The notes under the pieces are model-generated. The model saw only the letters and a program-made list of their open reading frames with translations, was not told where the DNA came from and made no database searches. Of a DNA stretch of 41,275 nucleotides, positions 95-41,177 are shown piece after piece (position 1 is the first letter of the stretch; the number at the start of each line of letters is the position of its first letter). Made by a program: the position numbers and the translations under genes. This stretch comes from a virus, in IMG/VR virus record IMGVR_UViG_3300032163_000039, positions 1-41,275 of that record, one strand, 5' to 3'.

Positions 95-99
95 TGAAG
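95..99. repeat. Left target-site duplication TGAAG
   Basis: The five host bases immediately before the prophage tip are identical to the five bases immediately after its right tip, as expected for a Mu-family strand transfer with a 5-bp stagger. Confidence 0.9.
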
Positions 100-149
100 T
101 GTAAGCACGCTCGTAGAATGAGATAAAGATGCACGTAAAATGAGATAAG
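100..149 (-). promoter_or_regulatory. attL: Left prophage end with two transposase-binding-like repeats
   Basis: Two copies of the repeat complementary to TATCTCATTYTAYGTGC lie at 109-125 (GCTCGTAGAATGAGATA) and 131-147 (GCACGTAAAATGAGATA), 22 bp apart. They point inward like the L1 and L2 MuA sites of Mu. A more degenerate third site may lie further in but is not clear. The repeats are inverted relative to those at the right end, as required for pairing of the two ends in a transpososome. Binding by this transposase is inferred from position and symmetry. Confidence 0.85.
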
Positions 150-321
150 AGGATTGGAAAGGCAGGAAAGACATGCTTCTGCGGTGACATGACCCCTTTA
201 TATCGGGTAGCCGCAGCCGAAAAGCCCTTCCTAATGAGTTGTTTCACCACCAAAATAAGACGGCTGTCCCGGTTAGAATCCCTCCATTTGATAGTTCGGA
301 CGGTTCACATCTGGTAGGGGC

Positions 322-368
322 TCCATTCTCAATAAGGCCCCTGATCCTGGGCATCCATTCTCAATAAG
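322..368. repeat. Two 15-bp direct repeats in the left non-coding end
   Basis: TCCATTCTCAATAAG occurs at 322-336 and again at 354-368. The stretch from 150 to 450 between the end sites and the methyltransferase gene holds no convincing gene. Apart from these repeats and the terminator hairpin I see nothing in it. In Mu the packaging start lies near the left end, so this stretch could hold a packaging signal or accessory transposase site, but nothing in the sequence proves it. Confidence 0.5.
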
Positions 369-408
369 ACAGAGAATCCCCCAATCGAGATGACCATAGG
401 CAAATGAA

Positions 409-433
409 GGGGACTGAGGCGTGCTCAGCCCCC
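409..433 (-). terminator. Hairpin terminator of the late operon
   Basis: GGGGACTGAG-GCGTG-CTCAGCCCCC forms a ten-pair stem with one mismatch, about 20 bp after the stop codon of the last late gene. The T-rich tail on the minus strand is weak (TTCATTT), so termination strength is uncertain. Confidence 0.6.
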
Positions 434-450
434 TTCCCCACCCCGTGATC

Positions 451-1260
451 CTACCCCTTAACCGGCTCCTCAGATAAAGAATAATTGCTGATAAGGAGCT
501 CTTTGGCCAACTTGCAGCGCTGGCCGGTCCTCGCGCCGGCGGTATAAGTAGTAGAAACTGCCTGCATTTGATAGCCAGCAAAGAGGTTGCGGATCTCCGG
601 GGTGTCGTTGATGCTCAGTAAGAACTTGCCCTGAATCCCTCCCAGAATCTCTTTAAGGCTGGAGAAGTCTTCAGGGGTGAAAATGCCCGCGCCATAGTCC
701 TTCTCGTGGCCCCAATACGGCGGGTCCAGGTAGAAGAAGGTCTGCGGGGTGTCATAGCGCCTAACACATTCATCATAGGACAGGTGCTCAATTACCGCAC
801 TTTCTAAGCGTTTATGAATATCATCAATTAATGCAATGATGGCAGGGCCCCCTAAGGGTTTGTTTTTGCTAAGTTTTGATACGGTAAAACTGCACCCTCC
901 AGCCGCAGAACCAGGCGGGGTGATGGAGCATCGCAAGAGATAATAATAACGTGCCGCCCGCTGGATATCGGTGAGGTTTTGGGGTTTGCTGTTCTTCAGC
1001 CGGGCGTACTCTTCCCGGCTCCTGAGGTTCCACCGCACCTGTTTGATAAACTCCTCCGGATGCATCTGGATGATCCGGAAGAGGTTGACCAACTCCCCGT
1101 TGATGTCGTTGAGCACCTCGCAAGGACTCGGCGCTTTGGCCAGGAGCACGGTGGCCGAGCCGGCGAACGGCTCACAGTAAACCCGGTGCTCCGGGATCAG
1201 GGAGAGGATGGTTTTGGTGAGCAGCCTTTTGCCGCCCAGGTAAGGCACCAGTTTGGACAT
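451..1260 (-). CDS. dam: DNA N6-adenine methyltransferase, D12 class (Dam-like)
   Basis: Predicted to transfer a methyl group from S-adenosylmethionine to adenine in a short DNA target. The family motifs are visible: PYLGGKR near residues 6-12, EPFAGSA at 30-36 (SAM-binding motif I) and the catalytic DPPY at 179-182. The length of 269 aa is normal for this class. The start has a GGGGGAAG ribosome site. It is the last gene of the leftward late operon, just after a tail gene. Part of the gene (about 770-900) is clearly more AT-rich than the tail genes, which suggests separate acquisition. The likely job is to mark phage DNA against host restriction, a role that Mu gives to the unrelated Mom modification. 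The recognition sequence cannot be read from the protein by eye. Confidence 0.9.
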   Translation of the reverse strand: MSKLVPYLGGKRLLTKTILSLIPEHRVYCEPFAGSATVLLAKAPSPCEVLNDINGELVNLFRIIQMHPEEFIKQVRWNLRSREEYARLKNSKPQNLTDIQRAARYYYLLRCSITPPGSAAGGCSFTVSKLSKNKPLGGPAIIALIDDIHKRLESAVIEHLSYDECVRRYDTPQTFFYLDPPYWGHEKDYGAGIFTPEDFSSLKEILGGIQGKFLLSINDTPEIRNLFAGYQMQAVSTTYTAGARTGQRCKLAKELLISNYSLSEEPVKG

Positions 1261-1345
1261 AACTACTTCCCCCAGCCATAATGATTGCTTCCCAGCCCAC
1301 CCTCCGTGTGGTTCTGCCCTCCTTTCCGTTGGATTAACGGGAGGG

Positions 1346-2401
1346 TCACTCCTCCCAACCTACCGCCCGCACCGTTTGATTGGGGGTGTTTTCATTGTTG
1401 AGATAAATCTTGTTGCCGTCCAGCAGGTGGCACTCGAAGGGCACCGCCCCCCGCAAGCTCTGAAAATCGCTGGCGGGCGGGGCGGCGTGCACCACCAGGG
1501 CGGCATTGACGCCGTCGTAGGAGATTCCCAGCTTGAGGATCGCGCCTGCGGTGGCGGCGGCGTTTCCCAGGAGTCGCCGGGCCGTTGGCGGCACCCTCAG
1601 TCCCAGGTCCGCGGCGGTGTAGCCATTGATGGCCCCGGCCACGATCTCGATAAAGGTGTTCCAGGCGACCTGGTTGCCGGCCTTGGTAAACCGCACGATA
1701 TTGGAGCCGGCGTTGTTGAGGATCATCCCCAGGTAGCGGAAGTTGATATTGGGCAGCACGATGAACCAGTCACCCTGGGTCAGGGTCAGGGCCGCGCCCG
1801 AATAGGTGATGGTGCCGCCGGTGCCGTTGTCGTTGTTGTTGGCGGTGATGGTCCGGATCAGCCCCTTGGAGGCCCCGGAGAGCACCAGCAGCTTGGCGTT
1901 GGCCAGCTCATCGGTGATGAAGCCATAACCGATATCCCCCGTGTTGCCATTATTGCGCAGGGTTATGACCTGGCTCACCTGGCTGGAGAACCGCATCACC
2001 GGCATAGCCTTGAGGCTGAAGGTGGTATCCGGGGCCGCGGCGATGGCATAGACGCAGTACCACTGGCTGGCCTTCTCGCTGCCCCAGAGGTTGCTGGGGG
2101 TGTCGAAATCCATCACCGCGTCGGCGCTCATCTCCCGGTACTTGCTGTCCGCCAGGCCGCCGTCCACGAACAACCCCCGGTGCAGGGGCGAGGGAAAGCC
2201 GCAGAGCATCACCCGGGCTTTGCAATCGGCGGTGGCCGGGATCTTCACCTGGGTGGCGTCCACCCACATCAGGTCGGGGCAATAGGCCAGCTCGGCCAGC
2301 TCCACCACCGCCCCTTCCACTTTCTCAAAATCGCCCTTCAGGATCACCTGGCGGCCGGTGCCGCTGCCCCATTTCGATTGCGGAACGTGAATGAGACCCA
2401 T
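1346..2401 (-). CDS. Predicted distal tail / tail-fibre protein
   Basis: A 351-aa protein of mostly beta-type composition, rich in Gly, Asn and Thr in its middle part (residues about 200-240). No family could be named with confidence. It starts with a very strong AAGGAGG site and lies directly downstream of the giant tail protein and upstream of the methyltransferase, the last virion-type gene of the operon. In siphovirus-like transposable phages this position holds proteins of the tail tip or fibre, and that is the basis of the call. It carries no signal peptide or membrane segment. Alternatives are a fibre-assembly protein or a capsid decoration protein. Confidence 0.55.
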   Translation of the reverse strand: MGLIHVPQSKWGSGTGRQVILKGDFEKVEGAVVELAELAYCPDLMWVDATQVKIPATADCKARVMLCGFPSPLHRGLFVDGGLADSKYREMSADAVMDFDTPSNLWGSEKASQWYCVYAIAAAPDTTFSLKAMPVMRFSSQVSQVITLRNNGNTGDIGYGFITDELANAKLLVLSGASKGLIRTITANNNDNGTGGTITYSGAALTLTQGDWFIVLPNINFRYLGMILNNAGSNIVRFTKAGNQVAWNTFIEIVAGAINGYTAADLGLRVPPTARRLLGNAAATAGAILKLGISYDGVNAALVVHAAPPASDFQSLRGAVPFECHLLDGNKIYLNNENTPNQTVRAVGWEE

Positions 2402-2471
2402 ATCCTACCTCCTTATTTTACCCCTGCCCGGCCCGGAAACGCCCCATCCTGGCCCTCTCAGAGGCTCAGTG

Positions 2472-5400
2472 CTAATAAACGTAAGCCCGGTAGCTCCAGT
2501 TGGGATCGCCGGGACCGGCCTGGTCGATGGCGTAGCAGTCGTAATCCGTCCCTGCGCCATCCACCGTCCAGGCCACCGGATAAGCCACCTGGCGCATCAG
2601 CCGCAGGGCCACCCGGCGCCGATCCAGGCTGACTTGCTTGCCGAAGCACCTGAATTCCGTCTGGTCGAAGCCGTGGAAATCAGAGCTGATGGCCACGTCG
2701 TCGCCCAACTCCAGGCGCACCCCTTCCAACCAGGTCTCCAGTTCGACGTTCTCCTGGGCGGCGCTCAATCGGAACAAGAGCCGCGCGGCCAAAAGGGCCG
2801 CCAGTTGCGGGTCCTCGGTGATCACCGGGCTGCCGTATCTGAGGTCGATATCTGCCGGCAGTTCCCCCAACTCATCTATCAAGGCCTGGTTTTTCTCCTC
2901 GGCGTATTTGCTGTTGTCCCGGTCATAGTCGCCATAGGTCACCCGGACCAGGTTTTTCAGGTCCCGCAGCTCGTATGAAACGCTGAGGCTCCGGATGGCA
3001 GAGGCCTGGAGAATGGCCAGGTTCTCCAGGAGCACGAAGGCCAGCAGCTTGTCGAACCAGGCCCAGGAGCCGCTGCGCTTGGCGTAGTCCAGGGCGCAGC
3101 TCAGCATCAGCACCAGCCCTTCCAAACTGCCCATCTGCCGCAACATCAGGTAGTTGGGCACATACTCCCAGATGTCCGCGTCCTCCACATAGGAGAAGGG
3201 AATGTAGTCGGCATTGAGCATATTGGGCTTTCCATCGCCGGCCAGGGCAAAGAACTGTGCCAGCATGGCGTCGAAGTGGGCGGCGTCCTCCGCCGTGGCC
3301 GGAAAGACCCACACCTGGCCGCTTCGGCCGGCCACTGCCAGCCCGAAAGCCCGGCCCACCAAAGCGTTCATCCAGGCGTAATGATAGTCGCTCTTATAGA
3401 GATAACCCCCGAACTCGCCGCTCTGCCGGTTCAGCCTGAGGTCATCCAGGATGCGCCGAGCCCAGGTCTGGGCCGTGGCGTTGCCGTTGCGCAGGTAGAT
3501 GTAGAGGCAGCCCAGGGCCAGACTTGCTCCCACCCCCGGATCATAATAGCCATAGACAAAACCATAATCCGAAAACCACACCGGGAATTTCCAGCCTGAC
3601 CCGTCCACCGCGCCATAAGCATCGATCCACGTTAGCCAGTTTTCCAGGAGATCCCAGGCAGCCGCGTCGTTGCTGCTGAAAAAATACTCCGCCAGGCGAT
3701 AGAAGGCCCAGTACTGCCCCAGGCCGTGGCCCGCCTCCGGGTAGGAGCTGCCGTTCACGTTCCCCTGGACGATGTCCCAGGCATTTTCATATTCGGCGCC
3801 GGGTAATATCCGGCGTTCGTAGCAAAAGTAGTCCAGATCGAAGTTGACACTGCCCCCGGGACCGATGGTGAGCTGCGTGGTGTTAGTGATTCCGGTGCCG
3901 ATGGTGAAGGCATTGTTGCCCTGATAGGTACCGTCCTTGATCCGGTGGATGAGGGAATTGGCCGGGTCGATGATCCAGGCGATCATGTGCCAGCTGCCAT
4001 CAAGGACACCAGTGATGTCAGAGTAAAAGTCTCCGGCTGAGGTGGTGATCTTGAGCTGCAAGTCCTGGACACCTGCGGTCTTGGTCTGAATCGCCCAGCC
4101 GTTAGCCCCCATTTTGTTCATGAGTTGCACGTAGTCGGCAGTTTGAACAGCTCCTTTGCAAATCAGGATGAGGGTGAAAGGATTGCTGCCAGGAACCAGG
4201 TTAGCGTTGCTGGCTCGGGTCAGGGAATAGGTGTTGTTCAAGCGAACCGCGGTGTTCCCTGGTTGGCAGATTCCGGTTACGTAGGTGGGGGTGCCTGTTA
4301 GGGTGTAACCATTGCCGCTGGAATCGATCAGGGAGTCATTAAATAAGTAACGGACGCTTCGTAATCCGTAGTTACGGTATTTAAGCCACCAGGAGAAGCG
4401 GGTGAAGTCCTCCTCGCCGCACAAGGGGATGGCCTCGATGTCGTTTCTGGTGTGCACCGGCAGGATGGGCCCCTTGATGCCCCCGTAACGGCTGTTGAAG
4501 CCGTCCTGGGCGTCCCGGTGCAGGTACAGATAGTTGGCCGCCAGGTCCAGCCGGTTCATCAGGTACGGGGCCAGGGGGTGGGCGTAGTGCACCAGGGTCG
4601 GGCCCCGCCAGGAATTCTGGCCGTAAGGCTCCAGGGAGATGGCCTGCCGGGGGGCGTAAGGGTAGGCGTCGCCGGCCGTGAGATCGAGGCCCACGTCGTC
4701 CAACCACCAGGCCGGAGGCTGCTCCAGGTCCTGGTTGATCTCCGGATACTTGAACTCCAGCAGCCGCAGCCGCGCCGCCCCGGTGAAGCGCACCGGGTCG
4801 TTGAATTTCACGTCCGTGATATGAAAGGTGGCGTCTGCCGGCGGGGAACTGCCTACGCCGATATCCACCACCTGGAGGGGGTGGGTGATGGGAAAACTGC
4901 CCGATTCCAACAGCATGTCGGCGAAATTCACCGTCACCCGGTTCCACTGCTGCACGTTCACTACGGTGTCCTTATAAAAATAGCTGCCGTTGGCGTCCTT
5001 CACCTTGGTGCGGATGGTGATCGTGCTCACCCCATTGAGGATGGGATAAATCAGGTAATTGACGTTGGTCTTGCCGGTGGAGTTGACCTCCGCGGTATTG
5101 ATCCCGGTCCACACGCCCCAGGCGGTGACACCTGCGGGCGTCTGCGTCTCCACCCTCAACTGGGTGTAGTAGGTATCCCCCTCAACGGTTTCCTCCACCT
5201 CCCGGTCCGTGAAGATTAAGTCAGCCTCGGGTCCAGAAGTTGAGTACCAGGCCCACCACCCCCCCCGCCGCCGGTCCCGGTCGTCCACGATATTGTCGAT
5301 GCGCTTGAACTGGCTGAAATCAATTTCGAACTGGGTGAGGTCGGTGTAGCGGTCAGGGAGGCCGTGCACGTAAGTGTGCGCCGCCCCCCATTCGTCCGCG

Positions 5401-6659
5401 TCCCCCGGCGCCGAGTCGTTCAGGGTCACCAGCAGCCGCCGGGGATGCACTTCGGGGTCGCCCGCCATGAAGGTCCAGTAATCCCCGGCTACGAAGTCGT
5501 TGCCGCTCCCCGCCTCCCAGTAGACCTCCAGGTCATTCCCGAGGGAGGTGGGCTGCTCCCGGCCGCTGGTCTTGCAACCCGTGGTGTGCCAGGTAATCCC
5601 GCCGTCATCGGACCATTTAAAAGTGGCGGTGCCGATCTCCCCGGTGGTCTCAGCCCAGACCACGTAGCGGATGCGGTTGGAGCCGGAGTAGATGCCCTTG
5701 AGGACCATCGTGGCGCTGCCGCCGCTGCTGATCTTGCAGATATTGTGGACCTGGTTGGCGGCGCCCGGGCCCCGGAGCTTGAGGCGCACCTGGCTCATGT
5801 CCGCCAGGGGACTTTGCGCCAGGCTCCAGTTCATGCCGTAGCCCCACCAGGCGGTGAAGCCGGTGGTGCTGTAGTCCTTCAGTAGGACCCGCAGCGCCCG
5901 GGGGCCCTGGGCTGCGGCCTGCATGGTGATCTCGCCCTGGTCGTCGTCTCCGGGGTAGAGCTCGATGGCGAACTTCTCAAAGCCCGCCGCCCCCAGGGTG
6001 GAGTCCCGGTACAGCAGGAAGGAGCCGGCGTTCCACTGGCTGCGCTCGAAGTCGTCCATCACCAGGGGAGAGGTGCGGCTCGCCTCATAAGGATAGAACC
6101 GGTCCCAGAGAAAGGAGACCAGGGCGGCATAGTCCCGTCCCCGCTCCCGCCCGGCGAAATGCAGCGCAGCCATCAGGTCCAGCACCCGGTCCACCGCGAA
6201 ATCATAGGTGTAATCGGCCCGATCCCGCCAGGCGGGCCGGACGCAGGGATAGTTGTTCAGGGCCTGATATTTACTGCCCTGCACCCCGGTATAGTAGAGA
6301 TAATAAAGCTGCACCACGGTGCCCGGCGCCAGGGGCGTCCCCAGGGTGACCGTGGTCCGGGCGCCGCTGTTGGCGAAACTGCCGCCGGTGTAATAATTGG
6401 TGAGGTCGCCGGACTCCGGCTCCGCCCAGAAGCCGTTCCAGGGGAACACCGTGGTGTAGAGCCACACCCCTCGGAGATAGGCCACCTGGCCACCGCCCGG
6501 CAGCGGGGTTTGGATGTAGACCTTACCGTCCGCGGCCACCGCGGTGCTCAGATTCGCGCCGCTCCAGTTCCCGGCCACCAGTTCCATGAGGGCCGCGCCC
6601 CCCTGGTTGTCATGGACCCAGTTGAACTGGCTCCCCTTGGCCCATTGCACGTAAGGCAT
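2472..6659 (-). CDS. Giant tail-tip/hub protein with inserted LamG-like lectin domain
   Basis: At 1395 aa this is the largest gene. It starts at an ATG overlapping the stop of the upstream gene (TGATG). Residues about 330-400 hold a module (GEIGTATFKWSDDGG) also found in the upstream gene. Residues about 760-960 look like a concanavalin A/LamG lectin domain (NDSLIDSSGNGYTLTG start, FDLDYFCYERRI near its end); this part is about 50% GC against about 65% around it. The next 140 residues are rich in Trp and Tyr in helical blocks (YWAFYRLAEYFF) and resemble a six-hairpin glycosidase-like toroid. The last 165 residues (NLVRVTYGDY onward) look like a tail-hub fold. Probable role: tail tip that binds, and perhaps digests, a surface polysaccharide. 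The hub position is supported by context; the enzyme activity is inference. Confidence 0.7.
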   Translation of the reverse strand: MPYVQWAKGSQFNWVHDNQGGAALMELVAGNWSGANLSTAVAADGKVYIQTPLPGGGQVAYLRGVWLYTTVFPWNGFWAEPESGDLTNYYTGGSFANSGARTTVTLGTPLAPGTVVQLYYLYYTGVQGSKYQALNNYPCVRPAWRDRADYTYDFAVDRVLDLMAALHFAGRERGRDYAALVSFLWDRFYPYEASRTSPLVMDDFERSQWNAGSFLLYRDSTLGAAGFEKFAIELYPGDDDQGEITMQAAAQGPRALRVLLKDYSTTGFTAWWGYGMNWSLAQSPLADMSQVRLKLRGPGAANQVHNICKISSGGSATMVLKGIYSGSNRIRYVVWAETTGEIGTATFKWSDDGGITWHTTGCKTSGREQPTSLGNDLEVYWEAGSGNDFVAGDYWTFMAGDPEVHPRRLLVTLNDSAPGDADEWGAAHTYVHGLPDRYTDLTQFEIDFSQFKRIDNIVDDRDRRRGGWWAWYSTSGPEADLIFTDREVEETVEGDTYYTQLRVETQTPAGVTAWGVWTGINTAEVNSTGKTNVNYLIYPILNGVSTITIRTKVKDANGSYFYKDTVVNVQQWNRVTVNFADMLLESGSFPITHPLQVVDIGVGSSPPADATFHITDVKFNDPVRFTGAARLRLLEFKYPEINQDLEQPPAWWLDDVGLDLTAGDAYPYAPRQAISLEPYGQNSWRGPTLVHYAHPLAPYLMNRLDLAANYLYLHRDAQDGFNSRYGGIKGPILPVHTRNDIEAIPLCGEEDFTRFSWWLKYRNYGLRSVRYLFNDSLIDSSGNGYTLTGTPTYVTGICQPGNTAVRLNNTYSLTRASNANLVPGSNPFTLILICKGAVQTADYVQLMNKMGANGWAIQTKTAGVQDLQLKITTSAGDFYSDITGVLDGSWHMIAWIIDPANSLIHRIKDGTYQGNNAFTIGTGITNTTQLTIGPGGSVNFDLDYFCYERRILPGAEYENAWDIVQGNVNGSSYPEAGHGLGQYWAFYRLAEYFFSSNDAAAWDLLENWLTWIDAYGAVDGSGWKFPVWFSDYGFVYGYYDPGVGASLALGCLYIYLRNGNATAQTWARRILDDLRLNRQSGEFGGYLYKSDYHYAWMNALVGRAFGLAVAGRSGQVWVFPATAEDAAHFDAMLAQFFALAGDGKPNMLNADYIPFSYVEDADIWEYVPNYLMLRQMGSLEGLVLMLSCALDYAKRSGSWAWFDKLLAFVLLENLAILQASAIRSLSVSYELRDLKNLVRVTYGDYDRDNSKYAEEKNQALIDELGELPADIDLRYGSPVITEDPQLAALLAARLLFRLSAAQENVELETWLEGVRLELGDDVAISSDFHGFDQTEFRCFGKQVSLDRRRVALRLMRQVAYPVAWTVDGAGTDYDCYAIDQAGPGDPNWSYRAYVY

Positions 6660-8419: not shown

Positions 8420-8483
8420 AGGCAAATAAGGCGGGTTGACCCCGCCTCTGTTTTATCCCTGGGTGGAACAAGCCGCCCGGTGT

Positions 8484-8503
8484 GGCAGGCGTCCCCGCCT
8501 GCC
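8484..8503. repeat. Dispersed palindrome between tail genes
   Basis: GGCAGGC-GTCCCC-GCCTGCC in the spacer between hub and small tail gene. Confidence 0.85.
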
Positions 8504-8507
8504 GTCC

Positions 8508-32925: not shown

Positions 32926-32928
32926 GGG

Positions 32929-33861: not shown

Positions 33862-33872
33862 AAAAACCTCCG

Positions 33873-34136: not shown

Positions 34137-34141
34137 GGTCC

Positions 34142-34372: not shown

Positions 34373-34917
34373 TACCCCTCCTCCATCTGGCTCACCGCCA
34401 GCCTCGCCTCGGCCACCGCCACAAAGGCCGCATCCAGCTTGGCCAGGGCTTGCTTTTTCTGCTCCCGGCGCCGCCGCAGGTATTCGGCCTTGCTCTCGTT
34501 CCGGGGCGGCTCCGGGCCGGGGTCCTTGACCAGGCGGAAAACATCCCCCTCCCAGCGCCCCACCTTCTGGGAGTCCAGCAGCCGCAGCCACTCCTGGACG
34601 TAGTTGGCCGAGGCCTCCGCCACCTCCTGGAGCTCCTCCGCGGTCACCGCCCGCCGGGCCCGGAGATAGCGCCACATCACCTCCTGCTTGCTGGGCTTGG
34701 CGGCCTGGCCGGTCCAGCGATAGACGCCGTTGCCCTGGGGCGAATTTTTCGTAAGGTCCCCGGACTTGACCAGGGCCCTCACCGCGTCATCCACCCGGCG
34801 CATGTCCTTGCGGGTCTGGATGCCCAGCCGGTCGCCCAGGTCCTGGCGGGTGACCGGCTTCTGGCCGTTGCGGCTCAACACCCGGGCCGCCTGGCGCGCC
34901 TGGTCGGCGAACTTCAT
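34372..34917 (-). CDS. Tandem winged-helix DNA-binding protein
   Basis: A 181-aa protein. Two helix-turn-helix/wing units can be seen: the first near residues 18-65 (PVTRQDLGDRLGIQTRKDMR), the second near 80-125 (VTAEELQEVAEASANYVQEW). The last 45 residues form a basic coiled coil (AEYLRRRREQKKQALAKLD). The start overlaps the upstream stop and has a GAGGAG site. It is probably a phage regulator or DNA-end accessory protein; no family is known to me. Confidence 0.65.
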   Translation of the reverse strand: MKFADQARQAARVLSRNGQKPVTRQDLGDRLGIQTRKDMRRVDDAVRALVKSGDLTKNSPQGNGVYRWTGQAAKPSKQEVMWRYLRARRAVTAEELQEVAEASANYVQEWLRLLDSQKVGRWEGDVFRLVKDPGPEPPRNESKAEYLRRRREQKKQALAKLDAAFVAVAEARLAVSQMEEG

Positions 34918-35096
34918 TTGCCGATCTCCTCGAAGGTCTTTTTCGCCCTGATTTTGGTGGGGTTGCAGGGGCCATCCGGCCGCCTGGAGCATTTGCCGTA
35001 ACCGCCAGGGATCAACTTGCCAGGAATAGAGGAACCCCGCACTTTCCAGAAGGGGCAGTCATTGCAATCACCCGTAGCTTCCGGTCTTTTTTTCAT
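34914..35096 (-). CDS. Small Cys-rich protein
   Basis: A 60-aa protein with Cys at 11, 14, 36 and 44 (DCNDCPFW, KCSRRPDGPC), a spacing that suits a small zinc or iron-sulfur site. The start overlaps the previous gene (ATGA) after a GAGGTG site. Function unknown. Confidence 0.6.
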   Translation of the reverse strand: MKKRPEATGDCNDCPFWKVRGSSIPGKLIPGGYGKCSRRPDGPCNPTKIRAKKTFEEIGK

Positions 35097-35416
35097 CTCT
35101 TCACCTCTTCGCCTTCCCAGTTTTTCACCAGCTTCTTGATACCCACCTCATAGAGCATTTCCTTGGCCACATATTTCCTGGCCATTATGATCCTCGGCAA
35201 AATTATGACTTCTGCGAATGGGTCTCCTGCGGGGACTGTGAGCTTCGCCAGATCCAAAACTATTTTCTGAGCTCCGATTAGGCGACCGACCAGCCTCTCA
35301 AGCATCCTCTCCGTAAGGCTTTCAGGATCAACCACGACCGTTTTCTCCGGGTCCTTAACCCGAATCATGCCGCGTTTTCTGCTGGCCCCTGGCCCCTGGC
35401 CCCTGACCCCTGTCAT
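35093..35416 (-). CDS. Hypothetical protein following MuB
   Basis: A 107-aa protein. Residues 17-107 (MIRVKDPEKTVVVDPESLTE onward) form the conserved-looking part, and the first 16 residues come from a CCCCTGA/CCCCTGG simple repeat. Thus ATG at 35368 may be the ancestral start, while ATG at 35416 overlaps the MuB stop and has a nearby GAGG. The rest is helical and basic at the end. Function unknown. Confidence 0.55.
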   Translation of the reverse strand: MTGVRGQGPGASRKRGMIRVKDPEKTVVVDPESLTERMLERLVGRLIGAQKIVLDLAKLTVPAGDPFAEVIILPRIIMARKYVAKEMLYEVGIKKLVKNWEGEEVKR

Positions 35417-36156
35417 TTCCTCACCCCCCTAAAGCCCATTTTCACGGCCTGGCGCACCATCTCCACCGTCACCTGCCGGGTGCGTTTGGCATTCGCCAGG
35501 CCCACCAGGTCGATCATGCTGCGCTTGATCACCCGCCAGTCGCCGCCTCCCGGCGCCGATTGCAGGGCGACCGCCCCGTCCGGCGACACCTCCAGCCCGG
35601 CCGCCTCCCGGCCGTAGGTGATGATGTCCTTGGCACTCACCGGCGCAAAGCGCATGGTCTGAAAGACCCGGGACCAGACCCGCTTATTCTGGCTTAACAG
35701 CGCCGTCAGTTCCTCTTCGCCGATGAGCACGATGGCGGCGCCGGTGAGCTCCGCCAGGGCCCGGACCAGGTTCAGGTGCCGGGGCGTCATGTCCATCTCG
35801 TCCAGGAAGACCGGGTTGGGCTGCCCCACCAGGCGCTCCAGCGCCTCGGCGAAACAGCCGTTCTTGGTGGCCGGCGGCTGCAGCACCCCTAACTCCCGGC
35901 ACAAGGCCTGCAAAAAGCCCAGCTCACTCGTGGCCCAGATGGGCAGCATCAGGAGATGCACGCTGCCGTTATTGGCCGCCCAGGCCGCCGTGGTGCGAGA
36001 CTTGCCGTAGCCCGCCGGGCTGATGATCGCCCCCAGCCGCCCTTCGCCCGCCCCCAACTCCAGGATCTCCATCATGGCCAGGAAGTTTTCCTGGTTCTGG
36101 CAGGCGACCCGCTTGTGCTCAAACTTCGCCGGGGTCCAGCCGTCTTTTTCAGTCAT
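35413..36156 (-). CDS. Transposition target-selection ATPase (MuB-like)
   Basis: A 247-aa AAA ATPase partner of the transposase, which in Mu binds target DNA, gives target immunity and stimulates strand transfer. Walker A SPAGYGKS at 46-53, Walker B VFLDEMD at 116-122 and a sensor-like IVLIGEEEL at 142-150 are visible. The C-terminal third is basic and helical. ATG at 36156 follows an AAGGAGG site; upstream in-frame codons (HRRDACATN) are only a translated palindrome. It lies directly after the transposase, as in Mu. Confidence 0.9.
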   Translation of the reverse strand: MTEKDGWTPAKFEHKRVACQNQENFLAMMEILELGAGEGRLGAIISPAGYGKSRTTAAWAANNGSVHLLMLPIWATSELGFLQALCRELGVLQPPATKNGCFAEALERLVGQPNPVFLDEMDMTPRHLNLVRALAELTGAAIVLIGEEELTALLSQNKRVWSRVFQTMRFAPVSAKDIITYGREAAGLEVSPDGAVALQSAPGGGDWRVIKRSMIDLVGLANAKRTRQVTVEMVRQAVKMGFRGVRK

Positions 36157-36188
36157 TAAGGTCCTCCTTTGCGCCTTGGCGTTGGTGG

Positions 36189-36207
36189 CGCAGGCGTCTC
36201 GCCTGTG
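36189..36207. repeat. Dispersed palindrome between transposase and MuB genes
   Basis: CGCAGGCG-TCT-CGCCTGTG in the 55-bp spacer. Confidence 0.85.
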
Positions 36208-36211
36208 CACC

Positions 36212-38518
36212 TTAGTTATCCGCCCCCGCCTGGCAGACCATCGCCAGATCCTGCGCCTCGAACCACTCCTTCAGGGCCGCATACTCCTCGCCGTGCCGGA
36301 AGTAGTAGGCGAATTGCCGGTCATCGGGCTCCAACTCCCCGCCCCGGGCCTGGTGCGCCAGCAGCGCCAGGTACCGCCGGCAGTCCGGCCGCGCCTTCAG
36401 CTCCTCCAGGCACTCCTCCTCCACCCTCATCCGCCGGGAGGCGGCCGCGGCGTCGGCTTCGATCTGCCGCTTCTCGGCTTCGGTCAAGGGCAGTGGCACG
36501 GGCTTTCCAGCCTGTGGGGCCGGCTGCCCATCCGCGCTCAACCCCAGCCGGGCGAAGTGCGCCTCCGTCTCCGGCTGCACCAGCGTCTCGCTCAACATCC
36601 GGCAGAAGACCGAGGCCTCCTTCTCCTGGTGCTTTTTCAGTTCGATCTGCGTCTTAAATTCTGCCTGGTGCGCCGCCGTGCCGGTGATCCTGGCGATGGG
36701 ATGCACCTTGGTCATCACCCGGGCCTCACACAGATAAGTCCCGTCCTCCTCAAAGACCTGGATGGCGTCCGGGTCCAGCAGGTCGTAGCGGATCATGACC
36801 GGGTGCCGCCGCCCGTAAAGCTCCGGGGCGTAGTAATCCCGGCCCAGGTGGGTGATGCCCCGGCGGTGGATGGTGCGCACCGTCTGGCTCAGCATCAGGA
36901 AGCGCAAATCCGCCGGCTCGATCCCCGGCCCCCGGCCCGCCATAAACACCTCCAGGGGCGATTTGCCCTTCAGGTGCCCCCGCGGTTGCGGCCGCGGGTT
37001 GTATTTCTCGTCCAGCCAGGCGGCCAGACCCCGGTGCGTCTGGAGCAAGGTGGGCACGGCCCCCCGGGTCAGCCGCTCCCACATGCGCCGGTGCTCCTTC
37101 TCGCCCCGGCTACGGTACGGGGGCTTCTCGTCGATGCCGCCGCCGGTATAGGTGGGGGCGTGCTTCTCGAATTCCTTCAGGGTCAGGTGAAATCGTTCCA
37201 CCGTCTTGCTCTGGCCGTGGTAGGGCCAGGCGAAGATGGTTTCGATCCCCAGCCGCTTGAACAGGCCGCCCAGGCCCGACTGCTCCAGGTTCCCGGTGAA
37301 ATACTTGGCCCCGAAGGCCTTGCCGTTGTCGATATAGATGCACAGCGGCAGTTTCCCCAGGGTGAGAATCGCCCGCCACAGGGCCGCGGCGATGGACCGG
37401 GTATCTTCCGTGGGCATGATCTCCCAGCCCACCGGGAAGTTCGACTTCATGTCCATGAAGGTGATCAGGGTGAGGCGTTTGGGCTTGCCGGTGTAGGGAT
37501 TGACGGACTCGAAATTGATGGTGTGGCCGTCCGCCACCAGGCAGTCGCCCACCTCCAAGAGGTCGTAATCCCGTTCGATGTGGTAGGCGCACTGATCATT
37601 CCAGGCCTGTTTGCCTTTCCGGCTGTAGATCCAGATATGGTTTTTGCGGGCCTCGAAATCATCCAGGAAGCGCTTGTAGGTGGCGTCCGACTCGTCGTCC
37701 GGCAGGCCGCGCAACCGCATGGCGTCACGGGCATTGCTGATGACCTGCGCCTTGTTGTAGCAGTTGGGAGAGAGGGCCCAGGCCAGCAGGATCTTCCCCT
37801 GGGGCATGCGCATCAGGTCCTCTAACTTCCCTTCCCGCCCCCCGATGCGGCGCCGGCCCCGCAGATGGTCGCCGTGTTTCGGGGCCAGGGCCTTCAGTAG
37901 GTCCGTGGCGCCGGCGTTGGTGGGGCGGGCGTCCCCGCCCGCCCTCCTTGCCCGCACCGCCCAGCGCTCCGCGGTCTTGTAGGTCACCGGCCCCAGGACG
38001 TCGTAGAGCCTATGATAGGGGCCGTTGGCCCCGGAATTGTAAGCCTCAATGAAGGCCAGTTTGGCGGGCAGGACCGCCCCCCAGCCCTTGGCCCGCCCCG
38101 CCTGGTCCAGGTAAAGCCTGAGCAGGTCCGCCCGGGCCAGGGCCAGGCGCTCCTGCCAGGGCGGCAAGGTCTTCGGGGTGGAGGCGTCCAGTGGCACAGG
38201 CGTCTCGCCTGTGGACCTTATCATCCCTCTCCCCTCGCGGGAGAGGGCTGGGGTGAGGGGGGTTTCTCTGACCCCTGACCCCTGACCCCTGGCCACTGCC
38301 CTCCCATCCTCCAGCAGCCGCCCCAGCTCCCAGGCCTCCGCTTTGCCCCGCACCTCCTTGGGCAGCCCGGCCCCCAGGTATTCCTTTTTTATTCCCCCGC
38401 CCCTGCCGTTGGGCCGTTCCCGGCAGGGCCACTGCTCCTTGTCCGCCCGTCTGCGTGCGGATCTTTCAGTAATCCCCAGGGCCTCCGCTAATTCTTTGGC
38501 CAACCATACCTCTGTCAT
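36212..38518 (-). CDS. DDE transposase (MuA-like)
   Basis: A 768-aa transposase that would bind the end sites, nick the tips and join them to target DNA. The N-terminal Mu DNA-binding unit (VWLAKELAEALGITERSARR) covers about 1-55. The integrase-type core has DDE residues D330 (CLVADGHT), D397 (YIDNGKAFG) and E441 (SKTVERFH), followed by a MuA-type C-terminal region (HLKGKSPLEVF). Residues about 75-118 and other spots are encoded by repeats: TGETPVPL, AGGDARPT and QAGKPVP come from three palindromes, and TPLTPALSREGRG from another hairpin. All catalytic residues remain, so the enzyme is probably active. ATG at 38518 overlaps the upstream stop (ATGA). Confidence 0.95.
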   Translation of the reverse strand: MTEVWLAKELAEALGITERSARRRADKEQWPCRERPNGRGGGIKKEYLGAGLPKEVRGKAEAWELGRLLEDGRAVARGQGSGVRETPLTPALSREGRGMIRSTGETPVPLDASTPKTLPPWQERLALARADLLRLYLDQAGRAKGWGAVLPAKLAFIEAYNSGANGPYHRLYDVLGPVTYKTAERWAVRARRAGGDARPTNAGATDLLKALAPKHGDHLRGRRRIGGREGKLEDLMRMPQGKILLAWALSPNCYNKAQVISNARDAMRLRGLPDDESDATYKRFLDDFEARKNHIWIYSRKGKQAWNDQCAYHIERDYDLLEVGDCLVADGHTINFESVNPYTGKPKRLTLITFMDMKSNFPVGWEIMPTEDTRSIAAALWRAILTLGKLPLCIYIDNGKAFGAKYFTGNLEQSGLGGLFKRLGIETIFAWPYHGQSKTVERFHLTLKEFEKHAPTYTGGGIDEKPPYRSRGEKEHRRMWERLTRGAVPTLLQTHRGLAAWLDEKYNPRPQPRGHLKGKSPLEVFMAGRGPGIEPADLRFLMLSQTVRTIHRRGITHLGRDYYAPELYGRRHPVMIRYDLLDPDAIQVFEEDGTYLCEARVMTKVHPIARITGTAAHQAEFKTQIELKKHQEKEASVFCRMLSETLVQPETEAHFARLGLSADGQPAPQAGKPVPLPLTEAEKRQIEADAAAASRRMRVEEECLEELKARPDCRRYLALLAHQARGGELEPDDRQFAYYFRHGEEYAALKEWFEAQDLAMVCQAGADN
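36497..36516. repeat. Dispersed palindrome in transposase gene (C-terminal copy)
   Basis: CACGGGCT-TTCC-AGCCTGTG, read as QAGKPVP. Confidence 0.8.
37924..37943. repeat. Dispersed palindrome in transposase gene (middle copy)
   Basis: GGCGGGCG-TCCC-CGCCCGCC, read as AGGDARPT. Confidence 0.85.
38195..38298. repeat. Cluster of three repeat types in the transposase linker
   Basis: A palindrome CACAGGCG-TCT-CGCCTGTG (38195-38213), a hairpin CCCTCTCCC-CTCGC-GGGAGAGGG (38225-38247) and a run of CTGACCC-type units (about 38267-38298) follow each other and are all translated. Confidence 0.8.
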
Positions 38519-38982
38519 TTTTCCAAGTTCCATAATTCCAGCAGTTGCTGCCGTTTTCTGATCTCCCGGTTAAGCTGGCGGGCCTCCTCTTGTAACCGGT
38601 GAATCTCGCTCCGCAGCGCCTCCGGCTCCTGAAAGGCGTGCAGCCGCCGCTTGCGGTTCAGCACCAGCAGGGGGCCATCGTCCCCCGCAGCATCACAGAA
38701 GGCCGGCAGGTATTCCGCCGGAACATGCCGGTCGGCCTTCGACTCCGCCGTCCAGGAATCAATCATCTCTTTGGTGATTTGGGTGTTGAGCAGGTGGGAC
38801 ATCTGCCCCGCCACCTGGTGGCGGGAAAGTGGGCAGCGCTTCAAGGCCTGGTTCATGGCTGTCTTCAAATCATCCAGGCAATGCATGGAACCGGGGCGGT
38901 CCTTTTCTTCCTCCCGGCCCCGGGTCATGGCCTCGAAGATGTTTGGTTGCCGGGCGTCTATTCTTTTTTTAAGATTAGACAT
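38515..38982 (-). CDS. Possible early regulatory protein
   Basis: A 155-aa protein between the Ner-like gene and the transposase. ATG at 38982 has AGGTG upstream and is preferred to GTG at 38988. The middle (CPLSRHQVAGQMSHLLNTQI, then KADRHVPAEYLPAFCDAAG) looks like a helical DNA-binding domain of the phage CII/CP76 style. The end is a coiled coil (EIHRLQEEARQLNREIRKRQ). In this position it could modulate early transcription or transposase action. Family assignment is weak. Confidence 0.5.
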   Translation of the reverse strand: MSNLKKRIDARQPNIFEAMTRGREEEKDRPGSMHCLDDLKTAMNQALKRCPLSRHQVAGQMSHLLNTQITKEMIDSWTAESKADRHVPAEYLPAFCDAAGDDGPLLVLNRKRRLHAFQEPEALRSEIHRLQEEARQLNREIRKRQQLLELWNLEK

Positions 38983-39004
38983 TGACACCTGTGCCCTTGT
39001 GGTC

Positions 39005-39241
39005 TTAAGATGCTGTGCAGGATTTGGGGCGGCCCCGGCCCCGGTTGCCTTGCAATTCCGGGAACACCGTCAGCGCGTCCAGGTCCAGGATCTCGGCAAT
39101 GGCCTCCATGATCCGGCGGCTCACCAGTTGGTGCTTCACCACCAGGGACACGGCGTTGACCGTCACCTCCATATCCCGGGCGATGGCCCGCATGGACCGG
39201 CCCTTGCGCAGTAGTTCGACCTTGATGTCGATGGTTTTCAT
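39005..39241 (-). CDS. Ner-like small HTH repressor
   Basis: A 78-aa protein, first gene of the leftward operon. RKGRSMRAIARDMEVTVNAV and the following ISLVVKHQ-like helix give a helix-turn-helix as in Mu Ner and other Cro-like regulators, which damp early and repressor promoters after induction. The basic tail ends RGRPKSC. CGGAG precedes the ATG. Two AACC-N4-GGTT inverted repeats over its own promoter are likely operators. Confidence 0.75.
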   Translation of the reverse strand: MKTIDIKVELLRKGRSMRAIARDMEVTVNAVSLVVKHQLVSRRIMEAIAEILDLDALTVFPELQGNRGRGRPKSCTAS

Positions 39242-39274
39242 CGTTTGAAACTCCGATTGGTTAATTACGAACCC

Positions 39275-39304
39275 ATATTAAAACCGCATGGTTTGATATG
39301 TCAA
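39275..39304 (-). promoter_or_regulatory. Leftward early promoter
   Basis: Minus strand TTGACA, 18-base spacer, TAATAT, about 34 bases before the Ner-like start. The spacer contains an AAACC-N4-GGTTT inverted repeat, so the promoter can be shut by a bound repressor. Confidence 0.8.
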
Positions 39305-39326
39305 GAGAAAAATTAACCTAATGGTT
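39281..39326. promoter_or_regulatory. Pair of AACC-N4-GGTT operators
   Basis: AAACC-GCAT-GGTTT at 39281-39294 and AACC-TAAT-GGTT at 39315-39326, centres 33 bp apart (about three helical turns). One lies in the early-promoter spacer, the other just upstream of its -35. Likely sites for the Ner-like protein or another dimer. Confidence 0.65.
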
Positions 39327-39335
39327 ATTTTTTTG

Positions 39336-39467
39336 TGTCCGGGCAGCTTTTTTGACCCTTTTTTGAGCATCACTTATTTTCTTAATTATATTTAATGCTT
39401 ACCTATGTCCGGGCAGCCATTGACATGTGCGCGCAAATGTCCGGGCAGGTCTGGTCCTGCTCGGACA
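39336..39467. promoter_or_regulatory. Four TGTCCGGGCAG operators
   Basis: Three direct copies at 39336-39346, 39406-39416 and 39438-39448, plus one inverted copy with a single change at 39457-39467 (CTGCTCGGACA). They flank and follow the rightward promoter, upstream of the repressor start, and fit autoregulation by the XRE repressor. Confidence 0.75.
39352..39380 (+). promoter_or_regulatory. Rightward repressor promoter
   Basis: TTGACC, 17-base spacer, TATTTT. One operator lies just upstream and three lie between it and the preferred repressor start. Confidence 0.6.
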
Positions 39468-39493
39468 TGGCTCTGGCCCAAAAATCTCATTCT

Positions 39494-39922
39494 ATGAGCA
39501 AATTTCAGGACCGCTTGCGCCAGGTTCGGGGCAAATTAACCCAGGAGGAGATATCCAACCAATTGGATATCCATTCTATTACTTATGGGAGGTATGAACG
39601 CGGGGAAAGGTCGCCTGGTGTTGAATTTGTCGAGAAGGTCTGCCGGGCCTTTAACATCAGCCCCACTTGGCTGATCCTGGGCGAAGGCCCCATGCGCCTG
39701 GACGAGGCCGCCGTTCCCGCCCCCGCCCCGGCCGCGCCCTTGAACCAGGAACTCCTGCGCCAGGTCCTGGCCGGGGTCAAGAAGGGCCTTGCCTTAAAGC
39801 GCCTGGTCCTGTCTCCCGATAAGGAAGCTGAACTGGTGGCCCTGCTTTATGATCACTACGCCAAGACCGGGGAATCTCCGGCAGAGCAAACCGTGGAGAG
39901 ATATCTTAGATTAGTCGCTTAG
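39494..39922 (+). CDS. XRE-family prophage repressor
   Basis: A 142-aa regulator whose HTH covers about residues 5-60 (KLTQEEISNQLDIHSITYGR, then FVEKVCRAFNISPTWLI). The C-terminal third is helical, without an S24 peptidase, so induction by RecA-driven self-cleavage is not expected. It probably keeps the leftward operon silent. The ATG at 39494 puts the HTH right at the N-terminus; ATG codons at 39467 and 39395 are also in frame but would place operators inside the gene. None has a good ribosome site. A transposase-site-like sequence overlaps the start. Confidence 0.85.
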   Translation: MSKFQDRLRQVRGKLTQEEISNQLDIHSITYGRYERGERSPGVEFVEKVCRAFNISPTWLILGEGPMRLDEAAVPAPAPAAPLNQELLRQVLAGVKKGLALKRLVLSPDKEAELVALLYDHYAKTGESPAEQTVERYLRLVA

Positions 39923-39930
39923 GAGGGAAT

Positions 39931-40179
39931 ATGTCCAAGCATGCCGATTTGCAAGAGGAAGTGGCCAAAATTGTCGCCTTCGCCCGGTCTTGTGACCCGG
40001 CCCCCGATAAACCCATGACCATTAATGGCAACCACAACATCCAGGTGGCGGGCGGCGGGGAGCGGCCCATGACTATCACCGGTCACCGCAACCTGCAAAT
40101 CAACGGCCCGGCCTCCATCCTGCGCCGTTTTTTCAAAATATTTCGCCCCCCAAGGGAGAATCATCATGAGCCTAAGTGA
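39931..40179 (+). CDS. Small protein with two INGNxNIQVAG-type motifs
   Basis: An 82-aa protein directly after the repressor, with an AGGAGGGAAT site. A helical N-terminus (MSKHADLQEEVAKIVAFARS) is followed by two copies of a strand motif, TINGNHNIQVAGGG and TITGHRNLQINGPA, and a basic tail (RRFFKIFRPPREN). A third version of this motif is found in the last gene of the cluster. Such repeated G/N-rich strands may form a small beta-helix or oligomerisation unit. The function is unknown; expression with the repressor in lysogens is likely. Confidence 0.65.
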   Translation: MSKHADLQEEVAKIVAFARSCDPAPDKPMTINGNHNIQVAGGGERPMTITGHRNLQINGPASILRRFFKIFRPPRENHHEPK

Positions 40180-40678
40180 CCGCCGCCTGGGTTACGCGGT
40201 TTTGGCCGCATCCTTCCTGGTCTTGTTGTTCCTTGGTTTGGTGGGCTCGCTTTTCTGGGAAGGCCAAAAGAGCCAGCAGATTGCCCCTCCATCGCCGTCT
40301 GCCTCACCGACCAAAGAGACGCCTTCGGCCCCCAAAACCATCCCTCCCCCTTTGGCCGCCTTTCTTAAACAACACCCTGATGAGCTGCAAGCCGCTGCTC
40401 GCGCCGTCGAGAAATGGCAAAAAGCCGGCCTGGTCGATTACTGGATCAGCCCCGATGGTATGTCCGCCCTTGTCCATGTGGAGCCCAAGTGCTGGTACCC
40501 CCTGCTCCATAAAGACAAAGAGACCTTCGTTCAGATTTTTCTTGTCTTTTTCCTTGGCTATAACCTTGACCATCCCGGACCCGGCGAAGTTCCGTTCTTC
40601 TCTGTTTTGAATATGTCCACCCGGGAACGCCTTGCCCGCGCCTATCTGAATTCCGGCGAGATTGAGATCTTTAAGTGA
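40166..40678 (+). CDS. Membrane-anchored lysogeny-cluster protein
   Basis: A 170-aa protein overlapping the previous gene by 14 bp, with a GGGAG site. One N-terminal membrane helix (YAVLAASFLVLLFLGLVGSL) is followed by a Pro/Ser-rich linker and a folded part of about 100 residues (HPDELQAAARAVEKWQKAGL, then VHVEPKCWYPLLHKDKETF). It is probably made in the lysogen and faces the periplasm or cytoplasm from the inner membrane. Superinfection exclusion or host modification are possible roles. Family not recognised. Confidence 0.65.
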   Translation: MSLSDRRLGYAVLAASFLVLLFLGLVGSLFWEGQKSQQIAPPSPSASPTKETPSAPKTIPPPLAAFLKQHPDELQAAARAVEKWQKAGLVDYWISPDGMSALVHVEPKCWYPLLHKDKETFVQIFLVFFLGYNLDHPGPGEVPFFSVLNMSTRERLARAYLNSGEIEIFK

Positions 40679-40710
40679 ATTCTGATCTTGGGGGCCTTAA
40701 GGAAAAACGA

Positions 40711-40735
40711 GGGTGAAAATTAGGATTTTCCCAAT
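40711..40735 (+). terminator. Possible terminator after the repressor operon
   Basis: GAAAAT-TAGG-ATTTTC hairpin, followed by CCCAATTTACATTTTATT. The stem is AT-rich and weak. Confidence 0.35.
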
Positions 40736-40761
40736 TTACATTTTATTGCACCGCTTATACG

Positions 40762-41175
40762 GTGGCAGTAACAAGCACAAAAAGGGGACAAGGGGTGCAG
40801 ACCATCAATGGGGACCAGAATATCCAGGTGGCCGGTGACCTGATTGTTGTTCAGTCGTCTCCGAAGCTTTCCAAATCTCTTATTTTCGGCATGTTCTTAC
40901 CTCCCCTGAACAGCATTGCCATCCTTCTGTTAATCACTTTTGAAAGCTTCTCGCCAGGGGATTTTCCAACCCTATCCTCGTCTCATCGCCCCGAACTTTA
41001 TCTCATTCTATGTGCATCTTTCAGCCAGTTCCTGTCGATTTATCTCATTTTACGCCTCATGCCCTTTTCCCCTTGTGTACCTCGTCAAGACCTTGAAAAT
41101 GCCGCAAAAGTTCCCCTTTCGTCTCTACGCATCCCCATGAACTCTATATCTCATTCTATGTGCCCCCCCACATGA
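40762..41175 (+). CDS. Possible membrane protein running into the right prophage end
   Basis: A 137-aa frame with GTG start. It begins with the third INGDQNIQVAGD motif and has hydrophobic segments (FLPPLNSIAILLLITF and YLILCASFSQFLSIYLILRL). The frame passes through all three right-end transposase sites, and its stop codon TGA is the first three bases of the target duplication, outside the element. The N-terminal 60 residues look real; the remainder may be translated non-coding end DNA or a gene that uses the end as code. No good ribosome site. Confidence 0.4.
   Translation: MAVTSTKRGQGVQTINGDQNIQVAGDLIVVQSSPKLSKSLIFGMFLPPLNSIAILLLITFESFSPGDFPTLSSSHRPELYLILCASFSQFLSIYLILRLMPFSPCVPRQDLENAAKVPLSSLRIPMNSISHSMCPPT
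40999..41172 (+). promoter_or_regulatory. attR: Right prophage end with three transposase-binding-like repeats
   Basis: TATCTCATTCTATGTGC at 40999-41015, TATCTCATTTTACGCCT at 41041-41057 and TATCTCATTCTATGTGC at 41147-41163. They are inverted relative to the left-end copies. Three right sites against two clear left ones, with unequal spacing, resembles Mu, where end asymmetry helps the transposase order its subunits. Confidence 0.85.
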
Positions 41176-41177
41176 AG
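41173..41177. repeat. Right target-site duplication TGAAG
   Basis: Identical to the five bases before the left tip; begins directly after the terminal ACA. Confidence 0.9.

What the first reader, a model, noticed from the sequence alone, without database searches (positions are those of the whole stretch)
95..41177. Base-exact prophage ends, target duplication and transposase-site arrays
TGAAG flanks TGT...ACA, and the repeat core TAGAATGAGATA begins exactly 14 bases inside each tip. Two clear left and three right copies of a 17-bp repeat are inverted to each other. The repeat (TATCTCATTYTAYGTGC) differs from the Mu consensus as I know it, so this transposase probably has its own end-binding specificity.
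Basis: partly seen in the sequence, partly recalled or inferred. Interest (0 to 1): 0.8.

Follow-up and report, generated by a model that had tools for sequence, protein, structure and literature searches.

The report
Mu-like prophage beside a tRNA gene
The sequence carries the exact ends of a Mu-type jumping bacterial virus with a recognisable version of Mu's own end sites, and this virus and several of its relatives sit just downstream of tRNA genes, which is unexpected for a virus type thought to insert almost at random.

Summary
TGAAG flanks TGT...ACA and five 17-bp sites form an inverted 2+3 array. Relatives fix the tips independently: terminal site at base 10, R1/R2 about 22 bp apart, L2 near +107, L3 in roughly 11-bp steps. 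Five of 10 two-ended phages, the window included, show matching 5-bp flanks. The window's right end is the phage left end.

The inference that the sites are unlike Mu's is not supported: the five Mu A boxes lie in the same register, and window R2 matches Mu R1 at 13 of 17 bases. The protein has a MuA/TnsB fold.

The unexpected result is the target. The window's phage left tip lies 90 bp from a tRNA-Lys 3' end. Thirteen of 36 left ends (7 of 15 in genome contigs) have a tRNA 3' end facing the left tip at 78-132 bp, against about 0.1% expected; with program-set tips and tRNAs only, 6 of 36 and 4 of 15. TniQ/TnsD models hit 0 of 9 records. Likeliest reading: a Mu-type phage with tRNA-anchored target choice; selector unknown; survivorship is the main rival.

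The parts
95..99 (.). 5-bp target duplication TGAAG, copy at the phage right end
41173..41177 (.). 5-bp target duplication TGAAG, copy at the phage left end
100..41172 (-). whole prophage, 41,073 bp; phage left end at 41172, right end at 100
   Evidence: tips fixed by site register in relatives and gene order
109..125 (+). R1 site (bases 10-26 from the right tip)
131..147 (+). R2 site, 22 bp from R1
   Evidence: same spacing in Mu and relatives
41147..41163 (-). L1 site (bases 10-26 from the left tip), preceded by a G tract in the tip
41041..41057 (-). L2 site, +106 from L1, inner half only
40999..41015 (-). L3 site, +148 from L1
39483..39499 (-). extra end-like site at the start of the repressor HTH region; role unknown, no counterpart noticed in relatives
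   Evidence: fifth best matrix score in the window
39336..39448 (.). three copies of TGTCCGGGCAG (39336, 39406, 39438) between the Ner-like gene and the repressor; candidate operator/enhancer (inferred)
36212..38533 (-). MuA-type transposase, 773 aa
   Evidence: phrog_310 E 7e-93, Mu-transpos_C, fold 4fcy/TnsB
35413..36210 (-). MuB-type ATPase
   Evidence: AAA_22, phrog_296 E 1.5e-32
39005..39241 (-). Ner-like regulator
   Evidence: HTH_35, phrog_769
39395..39922 (+). repressor (HTH_3); true start probably at 39467 or 39494
31450..31989 (-). Mu Gam-like end protection protein
   Evidence: phrog_491 E 3e-14
41263..41275 (-). 3' end of a tRNA-Lys(CTT) gene, cut by the end of the record; 90 bp from the phage left tip
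   Evidence: alignment to tRNA-Lys regions of three genomes at 80-86%; distance; not called by Rfam
28..70 (-). 3' half of a second tRNA, anticodon side towards the phage right tip (read by eye)
   Evidence: Rfam shows no tRNA match, only weak tRNA-like hits

Best explanation
Bases 100-41172 are an integrated Mu-type transposable phage, probably of a Thermodesulfobacteriota (Desulfobacterota) host. Its MuA binds five diverged Mu A boxes (L1-L3 at the window's right, R1-R2 at its left), pairs the ends and joins them to target DNA with a 5-bp stagger, leaving TGAAG on both sides. Shown from sequence: site register and array, matching 5-bp flanks, transposase family, gene order. Inferred: binding, replicative transposition, target choice through the MuB-type ATPase. 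The target seems not to have been random: the left tip lies 90 bp beyond the 3' end of a tRNA-Lys gene, as in several relatives (78-132 bp, same orientation). I infer that MuB or a partner recognises something in the tRNA 3' half or just beyond it; that last step I hold at about 0.55. The confidence given is for the end assignment.
For: Sites 6 against 0.06 expected. In 17 right ends R1 starts at base 10 and R2 follows by 22 bp (21 in L031 and L146). Left ends share L1 at base 10; L2 core at +106 to +109 in 17 of 38 rows; L3 at +136 to +207 in 30 rows. Contigs L015, L022 and L171 start exactly at the tip. Matching 5-mers in 5 of 10 pairs, about 0.01 expected. Mu's boxes in register. MuA fold and DDE-family match. 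tRNA: 13 of 36 left ends, 7 of 15 in genome contigs; chance 2e-30 and 6e-18 at 0.1%.
Against: Five of 10 pairs have no matching 5-mers. Left tips vary and are often TAT, not TGT. Mu L2 scores poorly. For the target: 23 of 36 left ends lack the tRNA layout; three have a tRNA 5' side near (L059 87 bp, L099 202, L106 409) and L024 a tRNA at 387 bp; several tips or tRNAs were set by eye (L011, L052, L180 tips; L025 tRNA half), and Rfam scores of the partial tRNAs in L011, L018 and L020 are below its cut-off. Only 6 of 36 and 4 of 15 remain if tips and tRNAs are taken from programs alone.
Confidence: 0.93

Rival explanations
1. Insertion is random, and the tRNA association is survivorship: DNA beyond tRNA terminators is permissive, so lysogens there persist.
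For: Most left ends (23 of 36) lack the layout. tRNA flanks often carry islands, and remnants of tRNA halves in L020 and L025 point to earlier integration there. Prophages of many kinds lie at tRNAs in D. piger (PMC12724379).
Against: Even if 1% of permissive DNA were such flanks, 7 of 15 has p 6e-11 (4 of 15 by programs alone 1e-5). The distance is narrow (median 95, SD 18) and the left end faces the tRNA in 13 left ends against 1 of 12 right flanks.
Confidence: 0.35
2. The cue is the terminator hairpin, not the tRNA: the phage inserts beyond intrinsic terminators, of which tRNA terminators are one sort.
For: A terminator-like hairpin lies in the outer 150 bp in 10 of 13 tRNA cases; L064 and L056 have one without a tRNA, and L063 one by eye. 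Hairpin-like repeats lie near hotspots of phage Ab30 (PMC5977238, passages).
Against: Only 2 of 23 other left ends have one (control 30 of 1,320); a looser earlier rule gave some more, with a control of 72 of 880.
Confidence: 0.2
3. The end sites are a new specificity unrelated to Mu's.
For: Each window site differs from the best Mu site at 4 or more of 17 positions; RcapMu and D3112-type ends do not score with the family matrix.
Against: Mu's boxes are in register and far above shifted positions; 13 of 17 identities between window R2 and Mu R1.
Confidence: 0.07
4. The repeats belong to another element (IS21- or Tn7-like) next to a phage.
For: TnsB and IstA share the fold of the transposase.
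Against: The sites bound a contiguous phage genome with Mu-type early genes, Gam, terminase, portal and capsid genes; no TniQ/TnsD match.
Confidence: 0.02

Closest known systems
Escherichia phage Mu (NC_000929)
   Same: MuA/MuB pair, divergent repressor and Ner, Gam, 5-bp duplication (Mu's recalled), A boxes in the same register: 10 and 32 (right), 10, 115, 155 (left) against 10, 32, 10, 116, 158 here (Mu box coordinates recalled, then scored)
   Different: Site sequence diverged; left tip has a G tract; no third right site found; left end faces a tRNA 3' end; carries a DnaB-type helicase. Mu targets are known as nearly random (recalled).
RcapMu and D3112-type phages
   Same: Left tips also rich in G (TGTAGGGGGGG; TGTGGGGAGG) and right tips TGTAG; RcapMu R1/R2 annotated side by side
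   Different: Their ends do not score with this family's matrix; D3112-group sites are at 10/93/124 and 4/46/93 (PMC4378225, passages)
Tn7-like transposons and CAST I-D homing to tRNA (PMC10293859, passages)
   Same: Related transposase fold; insertion at a set distance beyond a tRNA (30-33 nt there)
   Different: No TniQ or TnsD match in 9 records; a phage; distance here 78-132 bp and many tRNA types
Mu-like prophages of Desulfovibrio piger (PMC12724379, passages and Table 2)
   Same: 13 of 18 prophages in or next to tRNAs, Mu-like groups among them
   Different: The passages seen give no base-exact ends, duplication, distance or orientation, and treat it as ordinary tRNA integration

Membership tests
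Mu-type transposable phages | MuA-type DDE transposase | tested here: met
   phrog_310 E 7e-93, Mu-transpos_C; 4fcy first by Foldseek E 4.6e-17; D335/D402/E446 invariant in A1 and A2
Mu-type transposable phages | MuB-type ATPase next to MuA | tested here: met
   AAA_22, phrog_296
Mu-type transposable phages | Inverted arrays of transposase sites, R1/R2 22 bp apart, homologous to Mu A boxes | tested here: met
Mu-type transposable phages | 5-bp target duplication | tested here: met
   window TGAAG; 5 of 10 pairs
Mu-type transposable phages | Divergent repressor, Ner-A-B early order, Gam, head genes | tested here: met
Mu-type transposable phages | Enhancer-binding N-terminal domain and internal enhancer | tested here: inconclusive
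   1tns match E 0.056, probability 1.00; three TGTCCGGGCAG copies as candidate
Mu-type transposable phages | Replicative transposition and headful packaging with host DNA | not testable with these tools
   needs virion DNA or junction reads
Mu-type transposable phages | Nearly random target choice | tested here: not met
   13 of 36 left ends 78-132 bp beyond a tRNA 3' end. A property of Mu, recalled, that I do not count as defining; survivorship is not excluded
D3112-type phages | Sites at 10/93/124 (left) and 4/46/93 (right) | tested here: not met
   window 10/116/158 and 10/32; D3112-group values from PMC4378225
Tn7-like elements with TniQ/TnsD homing | TniQ or TnsD target selector | tested here: not met
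   PF06527 and PF15978: 0 of 9 records each, window included; some records are fragments

The most novel reading that the evidence does not exclude
A branch or several branches of Mu-type phages, this one included, do not insert at random: they home to DNA 78-132 bp beyond tRNA 3' ends, left end facing the tRNA, by a target selector that is neither TniQ nor TnsD. The cue lies in the tRNA 3' half or its downstream flank, since L020 and L025 sit at the same distance from tRNA remnants that keep that half. When the site is taken, a newcomer can land in the resident's left end at about the same distance (L047, L051).
Probability: 0.45. Interest if true: 0.8.

Novelty: new variant of a known kind. 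Interest (0 to 1): 0.6.

Why it matters
Mu is the textbook near-random transposable phage and Tn7 the textbook targeted transposon, built from a related transposase and ATPase. A Mu-type phage that finds tRNA flanks without TniQ/TnsD would show that targeting also arose on the Mu branch and would point to an unknown selector near MuB. Apart from that, the end alignment gives base-exact boundaries for many uncultured phages and a ready set of diverged MuA/site pairs for binding tests.

Tried and rejected
Joined-flank 20-mer in viral contigs: 0. Right flank in 297 genomes of the phylum of Desulfofustis: 55 with short hits, the best at 80-86% near tRNA-Lys, no empty site seen. An exact R1-R2 pattern in viral contigs: 0. 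A left-tip pattern found 5 stretches. Tip patterns failed in the D. widdelii copies; a spacing search then gave three pairs; the right end of copy L028 was not found. Rfam calls no tRNA in either window flank, in the whole window (one chance hit) or in L025; it scores L011 and L020 as tRNA below cut-off and L018 likewise. DnaB as a family trait: 1 of 36 relatives. Third right-end site: not seen.

Limits of the counts. One search lists 38 left-end rows; two (Dw_L029, Dw_L028) were set in the wrong register there, and Dw_L029 is the same end as L062. One search uses 35: Dw_L028 reset, Dw_L029, L108 and L050 dropped. Rows were picked from matrix hits partly by the look of the tip, so the G-tract count (28 of 35) may be high. 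L3 offsets use 30 rows; the rhythm test (R 0.79 at 11.15 bp, p 0.0002 on 17 distinct values against uniform spacing) does not correct fully for kinship. Right ends were seen in 14 of 42 stretches (13 phages); most of the rest probably do not reach the end. The 36 left ends have at least 100 bp of flank; L079 is dropped as the same phage as L174; some of the 23 negatives have flanks of 119-141 bp, too short to show a whole tRNA (L085, L102, L070). The genome-contig subset of 15 leaves out genome loci with no left end found or no flank (L021-L023, L170, L171, L177-L179, L181-L183). Tips of L011, L052, L059 and L180 were set by eye, near a tRNA already known, which favours my reading (implied L1-L3 offsets 156, 135 and 148 for L011, L052 and L180). 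Partial tRNAs were sought by eye in left flanks more than in right flanks. tRNA counts are lower bounds for two genomes. IMG/VR records may be cropped with tRNAs in mind, hence the separate genome figure. A further matching duplication (L046/L120, ACCGG) was seen by eye and not counted. The tree spreads tRNA cases over several branches, with few strong inner forks around the window; it was labelled before L025 was added.
Full report
WHAT WAS CLAIMED AND CHECKED. The coordinates in the finding are right. The 17-mer occurs six times with up to three mismatches against 0.06 expected in shuffles. The window is an entire IMG/VR record of 41,275 bases, so the host is seen only through 99 and 103 flanking bases, duplication copies included.

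POLARITY AND GENES. The window's right end is the phage left end. From there inward come the repressor (39395-39922, plus strand), then on the minus strand a Ner-like protein, a CII-like regulator, MuA, MuB, Gam-like, DnaB-type helicase, terminase, portal, gpF-like and capsid genes. MuA matches phrog_310 over nearly its whole length (E 7e-93). Its AlphaFold model (21 sequences, mean pLDDT 74.6, pTM 0.46) finds the Mu transpososome 4fcy first by Foldseek, then TnsB, the MuA core and, at rank 37, the Mu enhancer-binding domain 1tns (E 0.056, probability 1.00). VIA-align ranks TnsB 8aa5 first (Z 22.7, rmsd 7.8, 391 aligned), with 4fcy (Z 19.1, rmsd 22.0, 409 aligned) and 1bco (Z 19.0, rmsd 4.5, 253 aligned) below.

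ENDS IN RELATIVES. Relatives from viral contigs and genomes share roughly 35-46% MuA identity with the window. A matrix made from their sites served to list 38 left-end rows, two of them out of register, and showed right ends in 14 of 42 stretches, 13 phages; with three D. widdelii ends and the window there are 17 right ends. The terminal site starts at base 10 and R2 follows R1 by 22 bp (21 in L031 and L146). The core of L2 lies at +106 to +109 in 17 of 38 rows. L3 offsets in 30 rows fall at 136-137, 148-152, 158-160, 170-172, 182 and 203-207, a rhythm of about 11 bp, so L1 and L3 seem to stay on one face of the helix. Contigs L015 and L022 and L171 begin exactly at the tip.

TARGET DUPLICATION. 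Of 10 phages for which I paired both ends, 5 have identical 5-mers outside the tips: the window, Desulfofustis glycolicus (GCACC), SKS1.bin83 (CCTAT), L079 (TTCAT) and a Desulfosarcina widdelii copy (CTGAT). Chance would give about 0.01. The other five are two D. widdelii copies, one of which abuts another prophage, and three metagenome contigs.

RELATION TO MU. In the ends of phage Mu the A boxes, whose coordinates I recalled, lie at 10 and 32 from the right tip and 10, 115 and 155 from the left, against 10 and 32, and 10, 116 and 158 here. With the family matrix they sum to 13.8 against a mean of -117 and SD 22 for shifted positions; none of 24,870 reach it. R2 and R1 rank first and second of 284 in the Mu right end; L1 and L3 rank second and third and L2 fifteenth in the left. 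Window R2 agrees with Mu R1 at 13 of 17 bases. The sites are diverged Mu boxes. The left-tip G tract (28 of 35 left ends, 3 of 17 right ends) also occurs in RcapMu and D3112-type left tips, so it is wider than this branch. Its role is unknown.

TARGET CHOICE. The window's right flank matches DNA on the 3' side of tRNA-Lys(CTT) in three genomes, and the phage left tip lies 90 bp from that tRNA's CCA end. The same layout, tRNA 3' end towards the left tip, is seen in L052 (78), L020 (80), L011 (81), L180 (86), L029/L062 (90), L025 (95), L018 (98), L047 (112), L174/L079 (112), L026 (114), L027 (129) and L051 (132). With the window that is 13 of 36 distinct left ends with at least 100 bp of flank, median 95, SD 18. 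In genome contigs, which no virus-calling program cropped, it is 7 of 15; the eight without are L024, L028, L172, L173, L175, L176a, L176b and L184. The five genomes counted have at least 23-43 tRNAs each, so 80 bp per tRNA is 0.04-0.13% of a genome; at 0.1% the probability of 7 of 15 is 6e-18, at 1% 6e-11. Several of these rest on tips or tRNA remnants read by eye (listed under Tried and rejected). Counting only matrix-set tips with ARAGORN tRNAs leaves L026, L027, L029 and L174 in genomes (4 of 15, p 1e-9 at 0.1%) and 6 of 36 overall (p 2e-12). Against the pattern: a tRNA 5' side near the left tip in L059 (87), L099 (202) and L106 (409), and a tRNA at 387 bp in L024. Among 12 right flanks of at least 100 bp one (L139) has a tRNA 3' end at 106 bp; the window's own right flank has a tRNA half on the other side, about 29 bp from the tip.

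WHAT THE CUE MAY BE. L020 and L025 keep little more than a tRNA 3' half, so an intact gene seems not to be needed. Terminator-like hairpins lie in 10 of 13 tRNA cases but 2 of 23 others (control 30 of 1,320), so hairpins alone do not explain it. TniQ and TnsD models hit 0 of 9 records. Ends of one phage are also found inside or against ends of another in 6 of 28 left ends with at least 50 bp of flank: L009, L047, L051, L056, L026 and D. widdelii L028, which abuts L024. In L047 and L051 the newcomer's distance from the tRNA (112, 132) stays within the range; the others are unexplained.

LITERATURE. PMC12724379 (passages and Table 2): 13 of 18 D. piger prophages in or next to tRNAs, Mu-like groups included. 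PMC10293859 (passages): TnsD homing of CAST I-D 30-33 nt downstream of a tRNA. PMC5977238 (passages and section 15): 0.4% of Ab30 events lie inside resident copies, the two end domains being the smallest; hotspots near repeats. PMC4378225, PMC2628397 and PMC3362531 were seen as passages. The listings of my nine searches showed no title or abstract on distance-set insertion of a Mu-type phage beyond tRNAs; most subscription papers are not in that library.

VERDICT. The finding itself is sound and of a known kind. The end sites are Mu-type. What is new is the tRNA-anchored target, a strong statistical pattern, partly hinted at in print, without a proven mechanism.

Noticed in passing
L009, L047, L051, L056, L026; D. 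widdelii L028 against L024; right end of L029: Ends of family members lie inside or against ends of others (28, 37 and 96 bp of a left end repeated in L047, L051, L056; 5 bp between L024 right and L028 left ends), contrary to the target immunity known for Mu.
   Followed up: partly
27785-29134: A DnaB-type replicative helicase in the early region of a Mu-type phage; 1 of 36 relatives (G017) has one too. Mu uses the host's (recalled).
   Followed up: partly
38193, 36187, 13899 and other places: Short dispersed repeats (reading as TGETPVP, HRRDACAT, PLTPALSREGRG) occur in the phage, one in frame in the MuA linker between N-terminal and end-binding domains, a part with pLDDT under 50.
   Followed up: partly
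317-336 and 349-368: A 20-bp direct repeat (90% identical, 32 bp apart) containing TCCATTCTCAATAAG inside the phage right end, beyond R2.
   Followed up: no
L115 and L119 left flanks: Two related phages sit on the two sides of the same 26-bp host sequence in opposite orientation.
   Followed up: no
451-1260: A D12-class adenine methyltransferase is the last gene before the phage right end, the place of mom in Mu.
   Followed up: no
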